From positions 124,001 to 188,000 of the forward strand of contig CAIJRD010000011.1 in the NCBI GenBank assembly GCA_903822975.1: a stretch of 64,000 nucleotides of DNA, read 5' to 3'. The position numbers and the translations under genes are program-made. The DNA comes from an uncultured Sinobacteraceae bacterium (GTDB lineage: Bacteria; Pseudomonadota; Gammaproteobacteria; Nevskiales; Nevskiaceae). Below are positions 1 through 11,461 of the stretch, piece by piece (positions within the stretch are counted from its first letter, which is position 1; each line of letters begins with the position of its first letter). A model generated the notes under the pieces. The model was not told where the DNA came from. It ran no database searches and was given only the letters and a program-made list of their open reading frames with translations.

Positions 1-22
1 GCACGACGCAGCCGCACGATTG

Positions 23-61
23 GGTCGCACAATCGGATCGCACAATCGGGTCGCACAATCA
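23..61. repeat. 13-bp tandem repeat, three copies
   Basis: Three head-to-tail copies of GGTCGCACAATCG (23-35, 36-48, 49-61) differ at one base each, and a decayed copy may precede them from base 11. They lie in bases 1-260, where I see no convincing gene. Function unknown. Confidence 0.75.
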
Positions 62-260
62 CGCCGCAATTCGGTTCTGGCATCCGCGGCACTGGTCGCA
101 GCATATTGCGCCGGAGCCGGTGCCGCCGGAGCGTGTTGTGGCGTCGCCCTGCGCGCGGCGGAACAGCACGGTTGATTCGCGCTTGAGACTTCTGTCGAAG
201 GGGGCGGACTTCTCTTCGATCGACCCCAACGGCGCACCGGCCGACTACTTCAACCCGGCA

Positions 261-1034
261 TCAACGGTCCGCTGCAACATCCAGAATGCGGCCGGACGGC
301 GCCTGCTCGATCAGCGCAATCCGCGCGCCGGTTTCGTCGTCGTTCAGCATCGCCGTCACACGCTTTTCGGCAGGCAGATTCAGCACGCGTAGTGATCGCA
401 CGACGTTGTGATACGTCACCGTACGACCCGAGTTCTCGCCGCCGCGAATGGACTGACTCACGATCGGATCGAACGTTACCAGCAGCAACTCGGCATCGCC
501 CGGTGCTGGATCGTCACGCTGCACGAGCAGCGATTTGCCTTGACGCTCGATGCGCATTCCCGAGGCTCGAAGGTCGCGCGCGCTGCTGCGAATCGCATGT
601 TCGATCGCCTCGTGATCCGAACCCACTGCCTCGCGCGCGCCATCGATCACCAATTGCGGCGTATACACACTCGCGCGTAATTGTTCGGAGTAACGCCGCT
701 GCCGCTCGGTGAACTGTGCGGATGAAAACCGATCGTGCCAGCCAAGTCCATTCCAGTAGTCGACATGGAACGACAACGGCAGCACATCGCTGCGCTGCGC
801 TAACTCACCCAGATAGGCATCGGCGGGCGGACACGACGAGCAGCTCTGCGACGTGAAGAGTTCGAGCAGCACGGGTCGCGGCCCGGCGCTTGTATCCGGC
901 GACGGCGACGTCACTGGCATTGCCTGTGTACGCAGGCTCACCATCGCGACGACACCTGCCACGACCAGCGAGGACAGCAGCCATCGGGTTCGGAAGCTGT
1001 TGCGCACATCTCTCATTTTGCTTGGCCCGCTCAT
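261..1034 (-). CDS. DUF1223 family thioredoxin-like envelope protein
   Basis: A 257-residue protein with one hydrophobic segment near residues 19-33 (signal anchor or signal peptide), then the DUF1223 hallmark ELFTSQSCSSCPPAD with a CxxC pair at about Cys65 and Cys68, followed by a thioredoxin-like fold. The family is predicted to act in the periplasm in thiol chemistry, but its substrate is not established. The frame stays open upstream to 1322. I chose the ATG at 1034 because GAGGAG lies six bases before it and because the extra upstream residues look like non-coding translation (many Arg and Cys). No operon partner: the next gene is divergent. Confidence 0.85.
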   Translation of the reverse strand: MSGPSKMRDVRNSFRTRWLLSSLVVAGVVAMVSLRTQAMPVTSPSPDTSAGPRPVLLELFTSQSCSSCPPADAYLGELAQRSDVLPLSFHVDYWNGLGWHDRFSSAQFTERQRRYSEQLRASVYTPQLVIDGAREAVGSDHEAIEHAIRSSARDLRASGMRIERQGKSLLVQRDDPAPGDAELLLVTFDPIVSQSIRGGENSGRTVTYHNVVRSLRVLNLPAEKRVTAMLNDDETGARIALIEQAPSGRILDVAADR

Positions 1035-1376
1035 TCGCGACTCCTCGATGCATAGGCGGGAGGGTTGCCATCGGCAGTTCCACCCGCAACACAGTGTCTC
1101 GCGCGAGCCGGCGCGGCTTCCAGACGACACCGTCCGCAATTCATGATCACGACACCGGCAGCGCCTGCCGCAGTTGCGCACCGCCCCTGGCAAATTCCGC
1201 GGCGGGCGGGTGTAATCTGACCGGCACGCGCACCACCCGTCCCTCGTTTCAGCGGCATAGGCAACTCTGTAGAGCATCCTGCTGAACCGAGCCGCGATAG
1301 AGTTGGCTTTCATGTCCTTCATTGGACAGATGCTCGTGTGATTCGCTTTCTTTGTAATGAACCGTCGGGGTGCAAA
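1035..1376. other. Divergent intergenic region, no gene seen
   Basis: About 340 bases between the divergent DUF1223 and beta-barrel genes. Open frames here have the composition of chance translation. It must hold both promoters, but I could not pick a convincing -35/-10 pair. Confidence 0.5.
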
Positions 1377-2099
1377 ATGCGGGGAAACATGCTGGGACGT
1401 ACGCGGCTGAGCGCGGTGGGGCTATTGACGATGCTGGCTGCGCCGATGTCGACATTCGCCGACTCCGGTCCTTATCTCGGCATTCAGGCCGGCGCCGGAA
1501 TCCAGGACAGCAGTACCCTTTCACTCAGCGGTGGCACTGCAAGCTCCGGCATGCTCAAGTTCAAGCCGGGTCCGGCCGGCGGCCTCGTCGGTGGCTATAC
1601 GTTCGAGAATGGCCTTCGCCCGGAAATCGCCATCGACTATCAGCGCAATGATTTGAAAAACGTCGGCGGAAACAACAGCGCGGCAAGAGCCACCGCCAGC
1701 CTGTACTACAACACCGCGATCGACGGCTATTATTTCTACCTGGGTGGCGGCGCGGGCTACGCGCGCGTGAGCCTCCACGTGGACCAGTCTGGCGGCGACG
1801 ACGATTACCAGCCGATCTACTCAGCCGGCACCGGATTCGGTGTCGCCGCAACCCCGCACATTCTGCTCGGCGTTGATTACCGCTACATCGGCGCGATCGA
1901 CAAAATCCATGTCGCACTCGATTCCACCGGCGGGCCGGTCAACGGCGACTATCACTACCGCAGCAGCGTAATCACATTCGCAATGCGCTACTCGTTCGGC
2001 CATTTGGACTCAGCGGCCTACGCACCCGACGAACCGGTGAGCGTGGTGCCGCTGCAACTGCCACCGCCACCGCCGGCCGAAAGCGGCTACAGCAACTAG
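1377..2099 (+). CDS. Outer-membrane beta-barrel protein (OmpA-N/opacity-porin-like)
   Basis: About 240 residues. A signal peptide (hydrophobic core around residues 13-23, probable cleavage after STFA) is followed by alternating hydrophobic and aromatic strands (YLGIQAGAG, GGYTF, YYNTAIDGYYFYLGGGAGYA, LGVDYRYIG, ITFAMRYSF), the pattern of an eight-stranded barrel. After the last strand comes a proline-rich tail (QLPPPPPAESG) that might reach into the periplasm. It has no OmpA peptidoglycan-binding domain. Starts are possible at 1338, 1377 and 1389; the signal peptide works from either of the last two. Ligand or role unknown. Confidence 0.8.
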   Translation: MRGNMLGRTRLSAVGLLTMLAAPMSTFADSGPYLGIQAGAGIQDSSTLSLSGGTASSGMLKFKPGPAGGLVGGYTFENGLRPEIAIDYQRNDLKNVGGNNSAARATASLYYNTAIDGYYFYLGGGAGYARVSLHVDQSGGDDDYQPIYSAGTGFGVAATPHILLGVDYRYIGAIDKIHVALDSTGGPVNGDYHYRSSVITFAMRYSFGHLDSAAYAPDEPVSVVPLQLPPPPPAESGYSN

Positions 2100-2464
2100 C
2101 GCGGCACAGGCCGCAGAAATCGCGCCGCGCGTGAACCTCTCCGGTCGCGCGCGGTGGTTGATTCATGCTTACTGCGCGTTCCTTGTTGCGTTCGTCGCTG
2201 CGCGAAGCACGCAGCCCACCCACTCGCACGCTGCGCCACACGTTCGACTGTGCCTTCGCAGAGCATGCGCGGCACACGCCGACTGCCCGCGCGACGTTGG
2301 GATCAATCGCGCGCGGAATTTGCGGTCGCTGGTAAAACTCTGACGACCAAGCCGCTGCGGCTCTGGCCGTCGCCTGCGAAGTTAGAGAGGGCGCAGTCCG
2401 CAGACCAGCGATCAGCGATCAGCGATCAGCGATCAACGATCAACAATCAGCGATCGAAGTTCGC
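2100..2464. other. Convergent intergenic region, no gene seen
   Basis: 365 bases between the convergent ends of the barrel gene and the peptide synthetase gene. The only structure I see is the 7-bp repeat at 2410-2451. Confidence 0.6.
2410..2451. repeat. 7-bp tandem repeat, six copies (GATCAGC type)
   Basis: Six consecutive heptamers: three GATCAGC (2410-2430), two GATCAAC (2431-2444) and one AATCAGC (2445-2451). The array ends 13 bases before the stop codon of the minus-strand synthetase gene. Related heptamer arrays occur at 26261, 43841 and 50986. Confidence 0.85.
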
Positions 2465-5400
2465 CTAGCCCAGCTTGTCCAGGTCTTCGACAATCATTTC
2501 CGCAAGGCGGACCACGCCATCGCCTTTCATCATGCCGTAGTGATCCGTATCGATCGATTTGACCTGCGGTGACGAACCGAGCCAATGGCTCCATCCAAAA
2601 TCCGGTTTCTCGAAATCCTTGTAGCGGCGATTGAACGACTGACCGATCTGTTCCCGATACAGGCACATCGTGACCGCGGGCTCGACGCTCGGCTGATAGG
2701 CGTACGCCATCTCAAAGTGAATCGTGCTGATAGTGACCGTCTTGCGCTGTTCATCGAGCCGGCGCCGGAGGCGCTTCATCAACGCCGGACGATCGAAGCA
2801 GGCATCGAGCAGCGCGGCGCGGCCGCGACTGAATGTCCAGCGCACCGAGTCGAGCAGACGTTGGCTCCGACTCTTCGGCAGAGCCGGCGGCAGAGTCCCG
2901 ATCAAGCCGACGAACTGTGCCGGTGTCTGCTCTTGAGCCAGTTGACGGGCCGCCTCAAAAGCCAACAGGCCCGCCCAGGAATAACCGAGCAAGGCCGGTG
3001 ATTCGAACACGCCGAATTGCCGTATGGAAGATAACGCGAAGGCCACCGCATCTTCGAGCCGATCGTGCGCACGCTCAAGATCGAACAGCGCGGGCGACAT
3101 CACACCCAGGACTTCGCGCTCGCCGAGCAAGGGAATCAAATGCTGGTAGCACTCGAGATCGCCGGTGGCCGAATACCAGAGGATCACCGGCGGCCCCTTG
3201 CCGGAGGCGAGACGCGTGACCACCGGATTCCGACGCAAGGCGATTTCGCGTCGAAGTCCGCCCAAGGTGGGATCGGCAAGGAACAGGCCGATCGGAAGTC
3301 GTACGCCGGTTGCGGACTCGATGCCGAGCAAGAGTTCGACCACGGCAAGCGAGTCGCCGCCGAGATCCCAAAACCGCTTGCTCTCATCGTCGTCGGGGGT
3401 ACCGCGCAGGATCTGACGCCAGCACGCCAGAATCGGATCGCGCGCAGCGTCTTCTGCGGAATCGTTTTGCGCGACCGTGGCCTGCCTGTCCTGGAGCGCG
3501 TGACGATCGATCTTGCCCGCGGCATTGCGCGGCAGCTCGGAATGGAATTCGATCGACTTCGGAACCATTACAGCGGGCAACTGTTCCGCGAGAAATGCGG
3601 TCAAGGCATCCTCGAGCATCGGGTCGATCGCAACTTCAGGCATCAGCACCAGATGCGCGCTGATGCCGATGATTTCCTGCTCCGAATGAATCGGCACACA
3701 GACGGCCTCCCGCACGCGCGGATCGGCTTTCAGCAGGGCTTCGACTTCGCCCGGCTCCACGCGCACGCCGCGAATCTGAATCTGTTGGTCGATACGTCCG
3801 TGAAATTCGAACTCGCCTTGTGCGTTGATCCGCACGAGGTCGCCGGTGTAGTAGCGGCACGGCCTAGTGTCTTTGCCAGCGTCATCGCCAGCGTCAGCGT
3901 CAGCGCTATCGGCGGCGTCAGCGTCGATCCGCTCGAACTGGCGCGCATTCAAGTCTGCGCGGCCGCGATAACCGCGAGCGACTTGCGCACCGCTCAGCAC
4001 AAGCTCGCCGATTTCACCAGCAGCCACGGGATTGCGCGTCGCATCCACCACGCTTGCGACCACACCGAACGTGGGCCGGCCGATGGTCGGAGTGCCGGTC
4101 CCCGGCTCCACCACGGCCCACAGACTGTCGACCGTATTTTCGGTCGGCCCGTAGGTGTTGATCAGCCGAAACGGAAGACCGGCCGGTGGCCGACGATGCA
4201 GCACATCGCCGCCGGTGAGCAGCGCTCGCAGCGCGACATCGGATGGCCACGACAGACCGAGCATGCGTTCGGCGACTGCAGTCGGCACGAACGTCAGCGT
4301 GGCGCGGCTGGTCACCAGCCACTGCAGGAGTCCCGCGGGGTCGAGCAACAGATTCGATGGCGGAACCAGCAAGCGGCCACCCGCTGCGAGTATCGGCCAG
4401 ATGTCGGCAACCGAGGCATCAAACGTGGGATGCGCCAGCATCGTCATGCGGTCCGACGGGCCCATCGGCAGCGCCATGCGGTAGTGCGCCAAAAGATTCG
4501 CCAGCGCTGCGTGCGTGATCTCGACCGCTTTGGGCCGGCCGCTAGAGCCCGACGTGAAAATACGATAGGCGCAACGCGTCAATGGGATGTCGGGCAGCGG
4601 CACCTCGACGCCATCCGATTCGAAGGATTCATCGACCCGCAAGAAGCTTGTGTCGGGGAAGTCTTCGGCGCGATGGGAACTGTTCGCAGTCGTCAGCAGC
4701 TGCGTCACGCCGGCCTCGGCGATCTCGAACCTCAGTCTGGCGCCCGGCGCGGAGGGATCCAGCGGAACATAGGCGCCACCGGCACGCATGGCGGCCAAGG
4801 CGGCGACGACGAAATCGATACCGCTGTGTATCAAGATGCCGACGCCGTCTTCCGGCTTGATGCCGTGCCGAAGCAGCTTACGGGCAACGCCGTCGGCACG
4901 CGCCGCGAGTTCGCCGCGCGAGATCGACGCAGCCGACGCTTCGATGGCGAGCGCCTCCGGGTTCGAGCGCGCGAGCGCGGTCAAACACTCGATCACACTC
5001 GGACTTGCGCGGGCATCGGAATCGGATTCGGATTCGGATTCGGATTCGGAATTGAAATCGGAATTGAATTGGGAGAGGGCCGGTATGGGTCGCGACTGTG
5101 TAGCCACCTGCGCTGAGGATTCAGCGCCATCCCGCAACAGCGACTGCCCCACGGCGACGTAGGTGGAACGCTGAAGCTCGAACTGAACCACGCCGTCCGC
5201 GCAGGCCACCGCGAGGACCTTTCCTTCACTGGCCACCACGCGACCGGGACGATCCTGGCCAGTGATCCGCTTCGCCGAACGAACGATCGCGAGCGCTCCG
5301 TCGGGCAGCTCGATCGAAGCGCAACCGAAGTCGTTGCGCCACGCGCCCCAGTCGCAGGCACGCACCAGCCGTAGAATGTGGTCGACCGGCCACTGCCAGT

Positions 5401-6001
5401 CGATCAGGCCGCCATTCGGTGCCGTGTCGGAGCGTCGGTGATAGGTTCTTTTCGTCAAGTCCTGCGGCTGACCTGCAAAATTACCCGCCTCGAGCCGCTC
5501 GAACACTTCGTCGAGACTTTCCAGCGCGGCTTCCGTGCAGCGAAGGTTGAGTGTGGCAGTGGTTTCGTCGGCAGCGAGCGGAAAGCGGCGCTGCGCCAGC
5601 ACCGCGCCGGTATCGATGCCCTTGGCGATGCGGTGCCAGGTCACGCCATGACTGTGCTCGCCGTTAAGCACGGCCCAGGCGGTTGCCCACATGCCGGCGT
5701 AGGTGGGTAGCGGCGCATTGTGATAGTTCACCGCCGCCAAGCGCGGACTCGCAAGCGATTGCTCGGTCAAGAGGTGTCCGTTGACGATGCTGAACAGCAC
5801 GTCGCACGGATGGGCGGCGATAAATGCCACCACATCAGCTTGCGGGCCGTGCACCGGCAAGCCAGCACGGGCCATTGCAGCGGCTTCCGTAGCGGCTGCG
5901 GCGAACACACCAACGATCTGATGACCCCGACTCCTGGCGCGTTCGATGGCGCCGGCCAGCACGAGACTTTCACCGATAAACAGCAATCGCAATGCAGGCA
6001 A
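2465..6001 (-). CDS. One-module NRPS: formyltransferase-adenylation-carrier-thioesterase
   Basis: 1178 residues forming a complete F-A-T-TE synthetase. The formyltransferase domain (about 1-290) keeps the Asn92-x-His94 and Asp130 (GIDTG) triad with the same 38-residue spacing as methionyl-tRNA formyltransferase. An adenylation domain (about 335-840) has core motifs FTSGSSGRPK, YGPTE, YYTGDL and Lys830 in NAAGK. The carrier domain has GGDS (Ser884 for phosphopantetheine). The thioesterase has GYSWAG (Ser1008) and a late TDH histidine. It has no condensation domain, so one activated amino acid is probably formylated and released. A rough hand reading of the specificity residues (DAAFLGTVDK) is nearest to leucine codes; low confidence. 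Two acidic repeat-rich linkers occur, at 317-330 and 692-710. Start is TTG at 6001, preceded by AAGGA eight bases away. Confidence 0.9.
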   Translation of the reverse strand: MPALRLLFIGESLVLAGAIERARSRGHQIVGVFAAAATEAAAMARAGLPVHGPQADVVAFIAAHPCDVLFSIVNGHLLTEQSLASPRLAAVNYHNAPLPTYAGMWATAWAVLNGEHSHGVTWHRIAKGIDTGAVLAQRRFPLAADETTATLNLRCTEAALESLDEVFERLEAGNFAGQPQDLTKRTYHRRSDTAPNGGLIDWQWPVDHILRLVRACDWGAWRNDFGCASIELPDGALAIVRSAKRITGQDRPGRVVASEGKVLAVACADGVVQFELQRSTYVAVGQSLLRDGAESSAQVATQSRPIPALSQFNSDFNSESESESESDSDARASPSVIECLTALARSNPEALAIEASAASISRGELAARADGVARKLLRHGIKPEDGVGILIHSGIDFVVAALAAMRAGGAYVPLDPSAPGARLRFEIAEAGVTQLLTTANSSHRAEDFPDTSFLRVDESFESDGVEVPLPDIPLTRCAYRIFTSGSSGRPKAVEITHAALANLLAHYRMALPMGPSDRMTMLAHPTFDASVADIWPILAAGGRLLVPPSNLLLDPAGLLQWLVTSRATLTFVPTAVAERMLGLSWPSDVALRALLTGGDVLHRRPPAGLPFRLINTYGPTENTVDSLWAVVEPGTGTPTIGRPTFGVVASVVDATRNPVAAGEIGELVLSGAQVARGYRGRADLNARQFERIDADAADSADADAGDDAGKDTRPCRYYTGDLVRINAQGEFEFHGRIDQQIQIRGVRVEPGEVEALLKADPRVREAVCVPIHSEQEIIGISAHLVLMPEVAIDPMLEDALTAFLAEQLPAVMVPKSIEFHSELPRNAAGKIDRHALQDRQATVAQNDSAEDAARDPILACWRQILRGTPDDDESKRFWDLGGDSLAVVELLLGIESATGVRLPIGLFLADPTLGGLRREIALRRNPVVTRLASGKGPPVILWYSATGDLECYQHLIPLLGEREVLGVMSPALFDLERAHDRLEDAVAFALSSIRQFGVFESPALLGYSWAGLLAFEAARQLAQEQTPAQFVGLIGTLPPALPKSRSQRLLDSVRWTFSRGRAALLDACFDRPALMKRLRRRLDEQRKTVTISTIHFEMAYAYQPSVEPAVTMCLYREQIGQSFNRRYKDFEKPDFGWSHWLGSSPQVKSIDTDHYGMMKGDGVVRLAEMIVEDLDKLG
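5026..5049. repeat. In-frame 6-bp repeat coding a Ser-Glu linker
   Basis: The plus strand shows about four successive GGATTC-type hexamers; read on the minus strand they encode the SESESESES stretch joining the formyltransferase and adenylation domains. Six-base units leave the reading frame intact if copy number changes. Confidence 0.75.
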
Positions 6002-6084
6002 TGCTTGTTCCTTATGAGCGGGTAGTTGCTGCGTCGACTCGCGCTATCATTTTACGCATACACGGTCTGAGACAAGTTCCAACG

Positions 6085-6837
6085 ATGCCGGCGATCACCG
6101 CAGATCAGATGATTCGTGCGCTCGCCTTAGGGGTCTTCCCGATGGCGCCGACACGAAGCTCGGCAGAGATCAACTGGATCGAGCCCAAGCTCCGATCGAT
6201 CATCCCGCTCGACGGCTTTCGGATGTCGCGCCGCTTCAAGCGCACACTGTGCTCAGACCGGTTTCACGTCACTGTCGACACCACGTTCAGCCAAGTGGTT
6301 GCAGGATGCGCAGCGCCAACGGAGCGACGCCTCGACAGCTGGATCAGCCCTGCGATCGAAGCGGTCTGCGCCGAGCTTCACCAGCGTGGCTTCGCGCACT
6401 CCGTCGAATGTTGGCGCAATGGCCAACTCGTTGGCGGCATCTTTGGCATCGCGATCGGCGCCGCCTTTACCCTTGAGAGCATGTTCAGTCGCGAGCCCGA
6501 CGCTTCCAAGGTCGCGCTCGCCCACGCCATCGCGCGCCTGCGCGTCGGCGGCTTCCAACTGGCCGATGCGCAGTTCGTCAGCCCCCACCTCGAAACGCTC
6601 GGCGCGATAACAATTGAACAAGGTGAATACCGCAAACTGCTCAACGCCGCCCTCGCCGCCGGCGGAACGCGCGCGAAGTCGCCGCTCGAATCCGTCGCAC
6701 CATCGCCGGTTGATTTCTACGCAATTGACCAACTTGCCGAGAGCCTAAGTCCCATGAAGGGCAGCCTCGCGCCCAATGATGGGCGCAGAGTCGTAAACGA
6801 GTTAGAGACGGCTCGAATGGGGTTGCGGCAAAGTTGA
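6085..6837 (+). CDS. aat: Leucyl/phenylalanyl-tRNA-protein transferase, alphaproteobacterial type
   Basis: 250 residues. Aat moves Leu or Phe from tRNA onto N-terminal Arg or Lys of proteins, marking them for ClpS-ClpAP degradation in the cytoplasm. The matches include ALGVFPMAP, INWIEPKLRSIIPLDGF, SWIS, HSVECWRNGQLVGGIFG, ESMFSREPDASK (Glu equivalent to E. coli Glu156) and DAQFVSPHLETLGA (Gln equivalent to Gln188). The wording resembles alphaproteobacterial Aat more than the E. coli form, and about 55 extra residues follow the usual end. Start chosen at the ATG at 6085, where similarity begins; the frame is open to 5992 but would overlap the divergent synthetase. No clear ribosome site. Confidence 0.85.
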   Translation: MPAITADQMIRALALGVFPMAPTRSSAEINWIEPKLRSIIPLDGFRMSRRFKRTLCSDRFHVTVDTTFSQVVAGCAAPTERRLDSWISPAIEAVCAELHQRGFAHSVECWRNGQLVGGIFGIAIGAAFTLESMFSREPDASKVALAHAIARLRVGGFQLADAQFVSPHLETLGAITIEQGEYRKLLNAALAAGGTRAKSPLESVAPSPVDFYAIDQLAESLSPMKGSLAPNDGRRVVNELETARMGLRQS

Positions 6838-7215
6838 TTTGCGGTATCCGATTGGCGCGTGTATGACCTCTCCGATCGCTTCTCATCTGCGACATCGCGA
6901 TCCGAGCTCGGCTGGCCCGCGACACCGATTCGAATCGAGCGTTGCAGTGGACATCCATAAGCCAGCTTCGACGAAGGCTTGGGCCGGACCTATCGCCAGC
7001 CGAGTTCGATCAGTGTCGCGTCCTTCTCGCAAACGCACTCGGACTTGAATCGGATTGCATGCGGCATGCCGCTGGCGCGGTCATCCATATCCCCGCGTTG
7101 ACTGTCTAGCGACGGCACCGGCGCTTATCCGCAGCGCGCTGCCCGGCAGTTTACAGTCGCCTTACAACGGCATTTAGCTGCATCGATTTAAACTCCAAGG
7201 AAGAGGAGAAAACAC
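6838..7215. other. Intergenic region, no gene seen
   Basis: 378 bases between aat and a lipoprotein gene. Base composition falls toward the right end, where the accessory stretch begins. The last 15 bases hold the ribosome-binding site of the next gene. Confidence 0.5.
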
Positions 7216-7650
7216 GTGCAGCTTTTTAGAACGGCCATCTCGGCGCTATCCGCAGCTGTGCTTTGCGGTTGCGCAACGCTCGCGGGCGATGGTGGTTTCG
7301 ACGTAAGCCAGATCCGCGTTTACAACAGTGTCATCACCAATGGCGGATCCGGGACAAAATACGAGGAAATACCGACTTCGTCGGTGCAAAAGAAAGATCA
7401 CGTTTATGTCGTGACGCATCTTCGTTGGAATCCAGAGCTTGGCGATCTTGGAACCCATCACTTCACATGGACCTGGTACTCCGGAGATTCCATAGTCGCG
7501 AAGCGCGCAAAAGATCTGGATATGAAGACAACGCCCTACCGAGTCTGGTGGGGCTTTCAAGCCGCATTCTTTGAGAATGGTCACTATCGAGTGGACGTTG
7601 CGATCGATGGAAAAGTCATCGACAGCCACGAATTCAACATTACTGACTAA
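7216..7650 (+). CDS. Small lipoprotein of unknown function
   Basis: 144 residues beginning with a GTG codon seven bases after AGAGGAG. The N-terminus is a lipoprotein signal (hydrophobic run, then VLCGC, so Cys19 would be acylated). The body is rich in Trp and Tyr around residues 73-115 and ends with short alternating strands (YRVDVAIDGKVIDSHEF), suggesting a small beta domain in the periplasm. I do not recognise the family. Bases 7381-7440 contain 27 G/C of 60, well below the surrounding genes, which suggests recent acquisition. It stands alone, convergent with the SRAP gene. Confidence 0.75.
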   Translation: MQLFRTAISALSAAVLCGCATLAGDGGFDVSQIRVYNSVITNGGSGTKYEEIPTSSVQKKDHVYVVTHLRWNPELGDLGTHHFTWTWYSGDSIVAKRAKDLDMKTTPYRVWWGFQAAFFENGHYRVDVAIDGKVIDSHEFNITD

Positions 7651-7755
7651 TCAACAACAAGCCGAAAAAAACCGCGAACTGAAAATGTGGCTGCGGGACG
7701 TGCCAATTCCCGCCTTTGATTCCACCTCTCTTTCCCATTTCGCCTACTTCTGCAG

Positions 7756-8406
7756 CTATTTCGACAACTTTTTTGACGTGCTTGCAAGTGGCGCAGCCGC
7801 AAACTGCACTGCATCAAACAGCCGCAGCATCGACCTAATCTCTTCCTCATCCTTCGCATCGAGCCACCGCGCGTAGTCCTCTGGCGGCACAACCACAACC
7901 GAACGCTTCTCGTCATTCGGTGCGTGCATACGCTGCATGATGGGGTGGCCGGCTCCGGGAATCGTCAGCATCGAGAACGAACGACGCGGACGATCGTCCT
8001 CTCCCCGTTTGGACTCCCAGATTCCTGCCAACGCGAACGGCTTGTCGTCGGCGCGGTGGATGCGCCACCAGACCGGTTTACCCGATTCATAGTTGGGCTC
8101 CATAAAAGCTTGCACGGGCACTAGGCACAGCTGGCGCTTCTTCCAGGCGTTGCGAAAGCTAGGCTTGTCGGCGACCGTCTCCGAACGCGCGTTGTAGGTT
8201 TGCCGCGCAAGCTTCTCGTCCTTCGCCCACTGCGGCAACATGCCGAAGCAAGCCCGCACCGGCCCGCGCGTTTGATCGTTGACGATGATCGGCGCGTCGT
8301 AGCCAGGAAACGTTTCCAACTTGTATTGGAACGTCGGCATGAGCCCGGACGCCATCACGTCCCAGGCTTCAAGCTGTTCGTGCGGCGGTTGGTAGCGTGA
8401 ACACAT
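7756..8406 (-). CDS. yedK: SRAP/YedK abasic-site DNA-protein crosslinking protein
   Basis: 216 residues. SRAP (HMCES/YedK) proteins bind abasic sites in single-stranded DNA and shield them by a covalent thiazolidine link to the N-terminal Cys exposed after Met removal. Seen here: MCSRY with Cys2; NARSET with Asn72; Glu103 in AFMEP; His161 in MHAPND. These fit YedK Cys2, Asn75, Glu105 and His160 in order and spacing, so it should be active. Cytoplasmic. SOS control is typical of the family, but I did not find a convincing LexA box upstream of 8406. Convergent with the preceding lipoprotein gene. Confidence 0.92.
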   Translation of the reverse strand: MCSRYQPPHEQLEAWDVMASGLMPTFQYKLETFPGYDAPIIVNDQTRGPVRACFGMLPQWAKDEKLARQTYNARSETVADKPSFRNAWKKRQLCLVPVQAFMEPNYESGKPVWWRIHRADDKPFALAGIWESKRGEDDRPRRSFSMLTIPGAGHPIMQRMHAPNDEKRSVVVVPPEDYARWLDAKDEEEIRSMLRLFDAVQFAAAPLASTSKKLSK

Positions 8407-8625
8407 GTACGAATTCTAAGGCCGAGCGTTGCCTGAATGCCGTTCGTCCCTCTCCTAAACGCCGGTCGTCGGCTGCGCGACATCGATACCGGCAACGCTT
8501 TGCTGCCGGTCTCTGAGTCGTACATGAACACCCTTACGTAAAAGCCGAAATGCAGCTGCGGCATCCGCGAATGGCTAGAACGGCCTAGTTGGGCTGAAAT
8601 AACCTTGTTCTTGAGGAGGCTTGCC

Positions 8626-9027
8626 ATGCACACCTTTGAAGCCGCGCCGATCAGTTCAGTCGAACGTTCCCCCAAGTCAATTCCATCGCCAAGCCTGGTT
8701 GACGAGACGGTCTGCGCGATTTTGAGAAGTGAGCGGGCAATCGTGGGTGACTGGATTCGCCTGAATGCCATTCGTCGACGCTGGCTGGTTTCAGGATTTC
8801 GCGTGAGCGATTTAGTCAGCAGCCTCGCTCGACTATCGGTGCGCGGATTTTTCTATCTCACCGGACCCAACGACGATGCATTTCTCGTCGTCACCGAATT
8901 GCCGAATGCACTGCGCATCGCGCATCTGCGCGCCGTTCCGAAAATGAAACGTGCACAGGCACGTTGCTCCGCCAACAATTCAACATTTGAGATGGGTGCT
9001 GGACGTCGACTGACTGATCGCTCTTGA
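8626..9027 (+). CDS. Hypothetical protein
   Basis: 133 residues, not recognised. The ATG at 8626 is preceded by GAGGAGG with six bases between, a strong reason to believe it is expressed. The middle (about 45-90) looks helical, with a possible compact helix-turn-helix-like stretch (IRRRWLVSGFRVSDLVSSLA), then RGFFYLTGPNDDAFLVVT that could form a short sheet. No signal peptide or membrane segment. It sits alone in the accessory stretch. A small regulator is possible but unsupported. Confidence 0.6.
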   Translation: MHTFEAAPISSVERSPKSIPSPSLVDETVCAILRSERAIVGDWIRLNAIRRRWLVSGFRVSDLVSSLARLSVRGFFYLTGPNDDAFLVVTELPNALRIAHLRAVPKMKRAQARCSANNSTFEMGAGRRLTDRS

Positions 9028-9281
9028 ACAAGCCGGACTCAACAACAAAATCGCGTGCGACCGATTAGCGCCGCGCGTCTTACGCGCAGTCACATTTTGA
9101 AAGAACGCGCGGCGCCACGCACAAAAGTCCCGACGCGTTTTCGAGCGCGGCGTTCCCGTCGCCACTGAAATCGTTCGATGCGATTCGAAAGGTTCATGCG
9201 TCTAAGCGTAGCGAGCAAGGATTACATCGACCCAGTGCGTCGGGCATCCTTAGCTTGGAAATGTACCCGATCGGCGCTCAC

Positions 9282-9306
9282 AAAAAACCCCGCACATGGC
9301 GGGGTT
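9282..9306 (-). terminator. Intrinsic terminator of the higBA operon
   Basis: Perfect 8-bp stem AACCCCGC (9286-9293) with GCGGGGTT (9299-9306), five-base loop. Read on the minus strand it is followed by a run of six T (complement of 9282-9287). It lies 20 bases after the higA stop. Confidence 0.9.
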
Positions 9307-9326
9307 CGATCGATGTTACTTTGCGG

Positions 9327-9626
9327 CTATGCTGCTAGCGGCTCGATTTCTCGTTCGATATCTTTGCTTACAGTCAACTCAGCCTTGCGAAGATCATAGG
9401 CCACCTGAATATTCAGCCAGAACTCCGGCGTTGTCTTGAAGAATCGAGCCAAGCGCAATGCGGTCTCCGACGTGACCGCGCGCCGCTCTCTCACGATCTC
9501 GTTGATCGTCGGGGCTGATACATGAAGGCGCTGCGCCAAAGCGTGAGCAGTGATGCTCAACGGTTCTAAGAATTCCTCGCGTAGCACTTCGCCGGGATGG
9601 ATTGGCCGCATTCCGTTCTTGGTCAT
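9327..9626 (-). CDS. higA: HigA-type antitoxin, XRE helix-turn-helix
   Basis: 99 residues. N-terminal IHPGEVLREEFLEPL followed by the helix-turn-helix LAQRLHVSAPTINEIVRE, the signature of HigA/VapI antitoxins. It should bind and neutralise the HigB nuclease coded just upstream and repress the shared promoter. The C-terminal half (FFKTTPEFWLNIQVAYDL) is also typical. Nine bases separate it from higB, the toxin-first order usual for this type, and an intrinsic terminator closes the operon. Confidence 0.93.
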   Translation of the reverse strand: MTKNGMRPIHPGEVLREEFLEPLSITAHALAQRLHVSAPTINEIVRERRAVTSETALRLARFFKTTPEFWLNIQVAYDLRKAELTVSKDIEREIEPLAA

Positions 9627-9635
9627 TTGAAACTC

Positions 9636-9914
9636 CTAGTGGTAGTCCACTATTTCCACGTTTGTTGGGCCTTCATCTGTCCAAACGAAACAGATGCGCC
9701 ATTGCTTATTGATCCGAATACTATGCTGGCCGGCTCGATCGTCCTTGAGGGCTTCCAAATGGTTGCCTGGGGGCGCCCGAAGGTCGGTGAGCAACACGGC
9801 TGCCTGCAGCATCGTCAGCTTGCGTTCCGCGACATTCAAGATGTTGGCGAACCGGCGGCTTTTGCCTTCCTCGAATATCTGCTGAGTATCTGCATTGGCG
9901 AAGCTCTTGATCAC
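9636..9914 (-). CDS. higB: HigB/RelE-type mRNA interferase toxin
   Basis: 92 residues with the HigB pattern: MIKSF start, RRFANILNVAERKL, LRAPPGNHLEALKDDRAGQHSIRIN (split here only by helix boundaries), and WRICFVWTDEGP. HigB cuts mRNA on the ribosome when HigA is lost. The start is GTG at 9914 with no Shine-Dalgarno sequence before it. The nearest promoter-like box would start transcription within a few bases of that GTG, so the message may be leaderless. First gene of the operon. Confidence 0.92.
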   Translation of the reverse strand: MIKSFANADTQQIFEEGKSRRFANILNVAERKLTMLQAAVLLTDLRAPPGNHLEALKDDRAGQHSIRINKQWRICFVWTDEGPTNVEIVDYH

Positions 9915-9920
9915 GGGGGA

Positions 9921-9955
9921 ATACTATAACGCATCACGTTAAACGTCAAGCGTTA
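9921..9955 (-). promoter_or_regulatory. higBA promoter and overlapping HigA operator
   Basis: A palindrome ACGTT-A-AACGT (9936-9946) is nested within outer arms TAACGC (9927-9932) and GCGTTA (9950-9955). On the minus strand TTGACG (9949-9944) can serve as -35, with TAGTAT (9926-9921, 17-base spacer) or TATAGT (9928-9923, 15-base spacer) as -10. An operator lying on the promoter fits HigA autorepression. Confidence 0.7.
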
Positions 9956-9986
9956 ATACACTTCAACTCTTCCGGCCTCCCTCGCC

Positions 9987-10499
9987 TCAATAATCCCTAG
10001 TCCGGACAATGACCCGCATCGTCAACGGAGACGCCAAAAGTGTTTGCGGCATCACGAATCCGAAGTCGAACTTGTCGTGATGATCCCCGTCTTCGATCTT
10101 GTCGCTACCCTTGGCTGAGAAGACGACGTTGTCGCCGTCGACGAGCTGCACAGTGATCTCGACCGCTTTGTCGTGATTCGCGCGGGTGGCGTCCAGATAG
10201 CCCTTAACGTGCACCGAAAGCTTGTCACCGTCTGGCTCTCCGCGAAGCTGGAAGTCGCCGATGCGTACACCATCGCAATAGTAGTCGTAGAACTCGTCAT
10301 AGACGTGCGGCTCGGTCCACCTAACCGCGCCGAACGTGCCTGGTTCGCCCCATTGCGCCGAGTCGGTCAACGGGAACGGCGCCAGCAGTTCCATCGGCGA
10401 ATGCATATCCTTCGAAGTGTCGACGTCTTGGATGACCTGAATCGCGCCAGCTTCTACCGAAAATGACGCAAGCAAAAGCGCGATACCGACCAGCTTCAC
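9987..10499 (-). CDS. Secreted protein of unknown function
   Basis: 170 residues. A signal peptide (MKLVGIALLLASFSVEAGA, probable cleavage before IQVIQ) leads an acidic, beta-rich domain with many Asp and His residues (YDEFYDYYCDG, EDGDHHDKFDFGF). The family is not recognised. The start is GTG in a GTGA overlap with the stop of the upstream membrane protein gene, so the two are translationally coupled. Paired expression with a two-helix membrane protein suggests an envelope role, but nothing shows a specific one. Confidence 0.7.
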   Translation of the reverse strand: MKLVGIALLLASFSVEAGAIQVIQDVDTSKDMHSPMELLAPFPLTDSAQWGEPGTFGAVRWTEPHVYDEFYDYYCDGVRIGDFQLRGEPDGDKLSVHVKGYLDATRANHDKAVEITVQLVDGDNVVFSAKGSDKIEDGDHHDKFDFGFVMPQTLLASPLTMRVIVRTRDY

Positions 10500-10798
10500 T
10501 TCTGCACCATTAAATTCGCCGGAATATCCGATTTCTCAGTCGGTATTTTCATTGGATCAATAATCCGATTCTCTTCGGCTTTATGGTTATTCGGCGACAG
10601 GCTGCCGAATCCAAGCAGCACGATTCCGGCTAGGAAAAACGTTTCTCCAATCGACAAAATATTGCGCCGTTCATCCATCAAACCCATGTTGTTTATTCGT
10701 TCAAAAGGGGTTGATCCGCCTACCGAAACATCCATAAAAATTGCGGTAACGGCCGCAATTGCCCCGATCACAACCAGTATCCATCCCCAGGTCTTCAT
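10496..10798 (-). CDS. Small two-helix membrane protein
   Basis: 100 residues. Two hydrophobic helices (WGWILVVIGAIAAVTAIFM near the start and FFLAGIVLLGFGSL around residues 54-67) flank a soluble loop with FERINNMGLMDERRN. No family recognised. Start at the ATG at 10798, preceded by GGGGAGAG; the frame is open upstream to 10873 but those residues look non-coding. Its stop overlaps the start of the secreted protein gene by four bases. Confidence 0.7.
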   Translation of the reverse strand: MKTWGWILVVIGAIAAVTAIFMDVSVGGSTPFERINNMGLMDERRNILSIGETFFLAGIVLLGFGSLSPNNHKAEENRIIDPMKIPTEKSDIPANLMVQK

Positions 10799-10821
10799 CG
10801 CTCTCCCCCTGCTTGCCGCTC

Positions 10822-11037
10822 TTATGGCTCGGAGTGCCGCATATCCCGGAACTGCTGCGCCACCGCGTCGCACACTTCCCGCGTGAATCGAGGCGTTCCT
10901 ACCTCCTGCAAATTGACTCTGCCATTCGCGACATTTTCATTCACCGGCCGCTCAGATTGCTCGGCGCCAAGTCCTGGAGTTTCGTGGTCGAGAACGCCGA
11001 TCAAAACCATGCTGCCGATTATGATGCCGCAATCCAT
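10822..11037 (-). CDS. Possible small membrane protein
   Basis: 71 residues: a short hydrophobic N-terminus (GIIIGSMVLIGVL), then a hydrophilic tail that could end in a helix (FTREVCDAVAQQFRDMRH). AAAGG lies about eight bases before the ATG at 11037. It ends 23 bases before the next gene in the same direction, which would make it first gene of a three-gene operon. No recognisable family, so this is a guess from composition and position. Confidence 0.35.
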   Translation of the reverse strand: MDCGIIIGSMVLIGVLDHETPGLGAEQSERPVNENVANGRVNLQEVGTPRFTREVCDAVAQQFRDMRHSEP

Positions 11038-11461
11038 GCAACAACCTTTGCCGCCAGCGGCGCTTCTTGTGCATTGGTGGTCGTGCACCGCGGAGATCGG
11101 TTGTCGCATCTCGCTCGACGCAATCGATAGCGACGGCCTACCGAAACACGCCGCTGCAGGCCTGATTCATCCGGTGGGCAGTTTCGACAGCTCCCCTACT
11201 ATCCACCCGTCTCCGGACTGCGAGTATGTCCGGAGCCTCGACCTCTGCGATTGGGCGAGCGCCTAGCACGGGAAAGACATCTCGCTCCGTCCGCCTGGAT
11301 ATGGTCTCCGACTACTTGGGAGTTCAGGTCCGAGATCAGAGAACCAATAGAGATGATGGTCCGTCAAGGAATGCCATGACACGCTACGGCACATGAATTC
11401 GTCCAAACCCATACCGGAGAGGGGTTTTGGACATTGGACGGGATGCTGTGTCACGCAGAAA
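11038..11461. other. Intergenic region, no gene seen
   Basis: About 420 bases between tRNA-Lys and the small envelope genes. I see no coding sequence or clear terminator. Confidence 0.5.

What the first reader, a model, noticed from the sequence alone, without database searches (positions are those of the whole stretch)
2465..6001. Orphan one-module formylating NRPS (F-A-T-TE)
Seen: complete catalytic motifs in all four domains and no condensation domain. Known: formyltransferase domains occur at the start of a few multi-module synthetases such as linear gramicidin. Inferred: a stand-alone F-A-T-TE would make and release a single N-formyl amino acid (rough code reading suggests leucine-like). 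No tailoring or export genes flank it, so the product and its use are open.
Basis: partly seen in the sequence, partly recalled or inferred. Interest (0 to 1): 0.72.

Follow-up and report, generated by a model that had tools for sequence, protein, structure and literature searches.

The report
One-module N-formylating peptide synthetase
The gene encodes a complete but minimal assembly-line enzyme that appears to attach a formyl group to a single amino acid and let it go, a rare layout found once more in a distant bacterium, with an unusual release domain and a product that is still unknown.

Summary
Window 2465-6001(-) encodes a 1178-aa F-A-T-TE protein with no condensation domain. One full-length relative, in a Caulobacteraceae MAG (L009), has the same layout and substrate-pocket letters at 55% identity, so it is not a chance fragment. 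The other formylating synthetases I fetched share its F-domain clade, but in 25 of 25 with a readable A3 motif 381-483 residues, profile-matched to half a condensation domain, lie between F and A3; window (204) and L009 (183) lack that part. Two corrections: the release domain lacks the canonical triad Asp (Gly in both; Asp in 12 of 12 others read), and the pocket does not read as leucine. The divergent neighbour is a second, fast-evolving, alphaproteobacterial-type Leu/Phe-tRNA-protein transferase (AatX) beside the genome's normal copy; L009 lacks it, so functional pairing is unproven. Most likely: N-formyl-aminoacyl-S-T synthesis, then TE release or transfer. At 4 of 20 related regions the synthetase sits beside, or is fused to, a hybrid sensor kinase, hinting at signals. 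New variant of a known kind.

The parts
2465..6001 (-). F-A-T-TE synthetase, 1178 aa, TTG start
   Evidence: 55% identical full-length relative L009
5168..6001 (-). Formyltransferase (F) domain, residues 1-278, with the Formyl_trans_C subdomain; N92, H94, D130
   Evidence: Pfam; falls with NRPS-type F domains in the tree
5000..5167 (-). Low-complexity linker (residues 279-334) where other F synthetases carry sequence that matches half a condensation domain
   Evidence: spacing and profile comparison; no C match in the linker
3482..4999 (-). Adenylation (A) domain, residues 335-840; pocket D-A-A-T-L-G-T-V-D-K
   Evidence: (TIGR01733 1e-97)
3242..3460 (-). Carrier (T) domain, residues 848-920, GGDSL with S884
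   Evidence: Pfam; invariant
2468..3226 (-). Thioesterase (TE) domain, residues 926-1178; S1008 and H1154 kept, canonical Asp is G1035, E1117 conserved after the presumed beta-7
6082..6837 (+). AatX: divergent second Leu/Phe-tRNA-protein transferase gene (the ORF opens at 5992; true start not determined). Neighbour; membership in the system is unproven
   Evidence: Pfam; TIGR00667; paralogue search; tree; substitutions

Best explanation
A one-module formylating synthetase. The A domain activates one amino acid (identity unknown, probably not leucine) and loads it on the phosphopantetheine arm of T, which one of the genome's phosphopantetheinyl-transferase-family proteins could prime. F uses formyl-tetrahydrofolate to formylate the amine of the T-bound aminoacyl thioester, as established for linear gramicidin synthetase LgrA. 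TE then takes the N-formyl-aminoacyl group on S1008 and releases it to water or to a small acceptor. No condensation-domain step occurs. Shown: domain order, kept catalytic residues of F, A and T, conservation in a second lineage, absence of the half-C found in other family members. Inferred: formylation site and order, release chemistry. Unknown: substrate, acceptor, biological use.
For: Domain hits; same architecture, pocket letters and F/A/T active-site residues in L009, 55% identical; F domain on the NRPS side of a 100/99 branch that sets it apart from stand-alone formyltransferases; top PDB sequence relatives are LgrA entries; three PF01648 matches over cut-off in the genome, one beside another NRPS gene; uninterrupted frame.
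Against: The TE lacks the canonical triad Asp, so plain hydrolysis is less certain. Only one full-length relative was found. No tailoring, export or resistance gene is shared between the window and L009 surroundings. The Pfam Thioesterase match is modest (1.1e-10), and LgrA's F domain matches only at 1.4e-3.
Confidence: 0.6

Rival explanations
1. TE is mainly an acyltransferase: it hands the N-formyl-aminoacyl group to an alcohol or amine (or couples two of them) rather than hydrolysing it. The triad acid has moved, E1117 after the presumed beta-7 being the candidate.
For: Gly replaces the canonical Asp in both family members, while 12 of 12 other distinct TE domains that I could read keep Asp (two further fragment hits show no motif); E1117 is conserved in both where 6 of 6 other rows have Ala or Ser. 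Fungal A-T-TE enzymes use their TE for condensation (PMC10720950, passages; PMC9047271, abstract start and passages).
Against: No acceptor-making gene is known to be linked; the assignment rests on a sequence alignment of a poorly conserved region, without a structure; two of the six other rows have a Glu one or two places further on.
Confidence: 0.22
2. AatX works with the synthetase: it transfers an amino acid from aminoacyl-tRNA to the T-bound aminoacyl group in place of a condensation domain, F formylates the new N terminus, and TE frees an N-formyl dipeptide.
For: AatX is adjacent and divergent, is an extra copy of a housekeeping enzyme, is on a long branch (0.84 against a median end branch of 0.21), keeps the ESMFSR and D-x-Q motifs but changes 7 of 43 columns that are at least 90% conserved in 47 others. 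PacB moves Ala from tRNA to a carrier-bound antibiotic intermediate (PMC4052509, passages).
Against: An aat lies next to the synthetase at 1 of 22 F-synthetase loci (window, L009 and 20 regions, several cut by contig ends). L009's genome, a MAG, gives one aat match, beside accC on another contig. One of 47 control rows also changes 7 columns. Co-transfer by chance explains adjacency.
Confidence: 0.08
3. It is a decaying piece of a larger assembly line.
For: Low-complexity stretches in the linker and in the A domain; canonical TE Asp missing; low codon adaptation.
Against: Uninterrupted frame; catalytic letters of F, A and T kept; the same layout and the same TE change in L009.
Confidence: 0.05
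4. It acts in trans with the other NRPS genes of the genome (contig C9).
For: The genome has NRPS genes and a PF01648 transferase-family match on C9.
Against: It has its own TE and lies on another contig; no docking partner was sought or found.
Confidence: 0.05

Closest known systems
Linear gramicidin synthetase LgrA initiation module (F-A-T)
   Same: F placed directly before A and T; top PDB sequence relative (A-T stretch 1e-63, F domain only 1.4e-3).
   Different: LgrA is listed as dimodular F-A-T-C-A-T (PMC11253843, passage); here a TE follows at once, and F has a recognisable Formyl_trans_C part.
MupA/Atu3671-type F synthetases with a luciferase-like monooxygenase inside A (for example L086)
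   Same: F domain of the same clade.
   Different: Longer F-A spacing that matches half a C domain as a profile, TIGR04020 domain inside A, no TE in that frame.
Single-module F-halfC-A-T-TE and F-halfC-A-T-R proteins (L076, L077, L078)
   Same: One module with a terminal release domain and an N-terminal F.
   Different: 451-452 residues between F and A3; the TEs of L076 and L077 keep the Asp; L077 and L078 sit beside sensor kinases.
Fungal A-T-TE NRPS-like enzymes
   Same: One module, no condensation domain, TE release (PMC9047271 and PMC10720950, passages).
   Different: No F domain; substrates are described as aromatic alpha-keto acids (abstract start); fungal.

Membership tests
Formylating NRPS (F-domain initiation module) | F domain of NRPS type with the N-x-H and D residues | tested here: met
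Formylating NRPS (F-domain initiation module) | A and T domains with intact core motifs | tested here: met
Formylating NRPS (F-domain initiation module) | Feeds a second module through a condensation domain | tested here: not met
   no C domain in the protein nor in the 7 neighbouring proteins scanned; the nearest Condensation-family match seen is in a WS/DGAT acyltransferase about 12.6 kb away (L095:7407-8825)
Formylating NRPS (F-domain initiation module) | Formylates the T-bound amino acid with formyl-THF | not testable with these tools
   needs an assay
Type I NRPS thioesterase | Ser-His-Asp triad with Asp after beta-6 | tested here: not met
   Ser and His present, Asp replaced by Gly in both members
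Fungal-style A-T-TE NRPS-like enzyme | No F domain; alpha-keto acid substrate | tested here: not met
   F domain present; the substrate was not tested
Leu/Phe-tRNA-protein transferase (AatX) | TIGR00667 above cut-off, ESMFSR and D-x-Q motifs | tested here: met
   169.5 against 143.55 bits; alignment; roles of the motifs recalled

The most novel reading that the evidence does not exclude
A condensation-free route to N-formyl dipeptides: AatX charges the T-bound amino acid from aminoacyl-tRNA, F caps it and a rewired TE releases it. More broadly, stand-alone formylating modules would be synthases of small N-formyl signals, as hinted by relatives that sit beside, or are fused to, hybrid sensor kinases.
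Probability: 0.1. Interest if true: 0.85.

Novelty: new variant of a known kind. Interest (0 to 1): 0.5.

Why it matters
F domains are scarce: a 2022 review counts three N-formylated peptides made with one, always in an initiation module (PMC8949500, passages). A single-module F-A-T-TE would be among the smallest self-contained formylating synthetases, easy to express and assay, and would show whether formylation can be the whole purpose of an NRPS. The displaced TE acid makes a release question directly testable.

Tried and rejected
Genomic island with attachment repeats: the synthetase region lies just beyond a tRNA-Lys(ttt). I fetched the flank of 11 of the 15 relatives in the genus with a queC match: queC-tRNA-Lys is kept in 11 of 11, and none of the ten window genes beyond the tRNA matched at E<=1e-5 in the part held (about 2 kb in L172, 7 kb in L173, 12-13 kb in the rest). 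No second copy of the tRNA end was found in about 90 kb to the left. So a variable spot, not a shown island.

Own-genus duplicate as source of AatX: rejected by identity (36% to the genome's own copy, up to 52% to copies of other classes) and by the tree, but nesting among those rows against a place beside them is not resolved (AU p 0.23). The label alphaproteobacterial rests on the named Caulobacteraceae row L117 lying among them; the other rows are unnamed.

Plasmids and viral contigs: of 519 plasmid records with a match none covers 80% of the query; the viral scan gave 17 pattern stretches and no relative. G1007: an A-domain frame of 540 aa without F, rejected as a family member. L010: a 24% match to residues 1-269 in a 321-aa frame, rejected. 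The half-C match rests on the 25-row profile (hhalign probability 97.2, E 3.8e-11, against only five C domains); single rows match weakly or not at all. Promoter scan empty (0 found, 1.0 expected). Paper searches for F-A-T-TE or one-module formylating NRPS; no listed title or abstract start describes one, but searches listed only 25 of 32 and 20 of 83 papers. Substrate prediction: by eye only, inconclusive. The genome searches score only part of the first-look candidates (12 a genome, 6), so misses are possible.

Full report
Observation. The ORF at 2465-6001(-) encodes 1178 aa from a TTG. Pfam gives Formyl_trans_N, Formyl_trans_C, AMP-binding, AMP-binding_C, PP-binding and Thioesterase in that order, and no condensation domain; NCBIfam gives TIGR01733 at 1e-97. 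In the PDB the best sequence relatives are entries of LgrA.

Distribution. At E<=1e-90 the protein is found only in its own genome among 58 of its family. With the F domain alone at E<=1e-21, 4 of 85 genomes of the order match: its own, and three in frames of 677, 342 and 314 aa that fall with rows that I take, by length and motif, for ArnA-type and Fmt-type formyltransferases. A scan of species genomes gave 2 relatives among 30 pattern stretches: one full-length, L009 (Caulobacteraceae MAG; 1135 aa; 52% in the best segment, 55% over the alignment), with the same six Pfam matches, and L010, a formyltransferase-only match. In 390 genomes of L009's family, 2 match at E<=1e-90: L009's own, and one with only an A domain (two candidates a genome scored). 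The F-domain search at E<=1e-22 gave matches in 23 of 369 class genomes and 35 of 398 phylum genomes, own genome included; many of these are frames under 900 aa, of the stand-alone type.

Relationship. I fetched 20 F-synthetase regions and built an F-domain tree with further short loci (50 rows). The NRPS-type F domains fall on one side of a 100/99 branch (32 rows) and the 18 stand-alone rows on the other; window and L009 are a pair (100/99) on a long stem. The program warns that long branches meet at that split, so their place relative to the rest is not settled. In 25 of 25 other F synthetases with a readable A3 motif, 381-483 residues separate the end of F and A3, against 204 in the window and 183 in L009. 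The extra part, as a 25-row profile, matches the C-terminal half of C domains (hhalign probability 97.2, E 3.8e-11, 204 columns, template 191-435 of 440). Single rows are weak: Pfam sees it in L073, L074 and L090, the last two under the curated cut-off, and faintly in one of six slices (L077). So window and L009 either lost, or never had, a half-C domain.

Active sites. F keeps N92, H94 and D130; T keeps S884; A keeps K830 (positions; roles recalled). The pocket reads D-A-A-T-L-G-T-V-D-K by motif alignment, identical in L009; the numbering is recalled from GrsA. By memory this is no known code, and the ninth-place Asp does not fit leucine; EntF, a serine enzyme, has D754 in its pocket (PMC11253843, passage). 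I call the substrate unknown.

TE. EntF FLGLLDTWPP aligns with FVGLIGTLPP in the window; L009 has FVGLVGALPP. A search of the loci in hand gave 18 TE hits: window and L009, 12 other distinct domains, two repeats of one of them, and two fragments without the motif. Asp stands there in 12 of 12 other domains, read by eye. The nucleophile motif is GYSWA in the window and GYSWG in L009; the C9 TE of the same genome has GWCVA, so Ala at that place is not by itself odd. E1117 is conserved in both where 6 of 6 other aligned rows have Ala or Ser and could be a moved acid. That is inference.

Neighbour. AatX (6082-6837, +) is one of two aat genes of the genome: the other, on the same contig, is 36% identical. 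Of the 17 other genus genomes 16 have one match and one has none at E<=1e-30; these are 35-41% identical to AatX. In the phylum sample 84 of 398 genomes match at 1e-50; the other 83 are all of other classes. In the tree AatX falls among such rows, with the Caulobacteraceae row L117 (98/98 set of 20), on a branch of 0.84, and again with L127 left out (99/99); the AU test does not reject a place beside them (p 0.23). It differs at 7 of 43 well-conserved columns; the 47 other rows differ at 0-7, one of them at 7. By recall of the E. coli structure some of these positions lie in the donor pocket. L009's genome gives one aat match, beside accC, on another contig than its synthetase; as a MAG it may be incomplete. 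A protein comparison of the two surroundings shares, beyond the synthetase and its reverse-strand shadows, two weak pairs (26-27%): MarR-like frames, and a frame pair some 53 kb off in the window. An aat lies close at 1 of 22 F-synthetase loci.

Setting. Codon adaptation of the synthetase (0.579) and AatX (0.512) is below 13 of 13 reference genes (0.593-0.773), but the reference was made from those genes. The region lies beyond a tRNA-Lys that is kept in 11 of 11 fetched relatives, without these genes beyond it. This fits lateral gain without proving it.

Signals. In L078 an in-frame ATG lies 23 bases after the synthetase stop; in L077 the first candidates are 12 (TTG) and 45 (ATG) bases after it (positions). 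The two kinases are 40% identical. In L075 a related kinase lies 1.8 kb away on the same strand, and in L085 one 4521-aa frame holds F, A, C, T, reductase, PAS and HATPase matches and a partial REC match. That is 4 of the 20 regions fetched, several of them cut by contig ends; window and L009 have none at E<=1e-15. It hints that such products are sensed, but is indirect for the window.

Literature. A 2022 review says only three N-formylated peptides are due to an F domain, always in the initiation module (PMC8949500, passages). Later, F domains are reported in multi-module lines of Entotheonella (PMC12858407 and PMC11705928, passages). I found no stand-alone F-A-T-TE in the listings; the library is partial.

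Verdict. Real, complete, rare, and a variant of known formylating synthetases. Formyl-aminoacyl-S-T formation is likely; the way of release, the substrate and the use are open.

Noticed in passing
L077:8715-15416 and L078:4182-11290: Single-module formylating synthetases (with TE and with R) each directly followed by a hybrid sensor histidine kinase; the two kinases are 40% identical.
   Followed up: partly
L085:2547-16109(-): One 4521-aa open frame joins a formylating multi-module NRPS with a reductase and a PAS-HATPase sensor-kinase part with a partial REC match.
   Followed up: partly
window 6082-6837: Second, fast-evolving aat gene of a type found in other classes, beside the genome's normal copy.
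   Followed up: yes
window 1-11461: Variable region beyond tRNA-Lys with low codon adaptation in 7 genes measured, a HigBA-like pair (9327-9914) and an SRAP gene (7756-8406).
   Followed up: partly
L094:603-4853: C-A-T-TE protein on contig C9 whose TE nucleophile motif is GWCVA, with Cys in place of Ser; also in L012, L015 and L016.
   Followed up: no
L095:7407-8825: WS/DGAT-type acyltransferase gene about 12.6 kb from the synthetase, with a Condensation-family match.
   Followed up: no
L149:5871-7490: A-domain frame of 540 aa, 41% identical to the L009 A domain, without an F-domain match in the 15 kb held.
   Followed up: no
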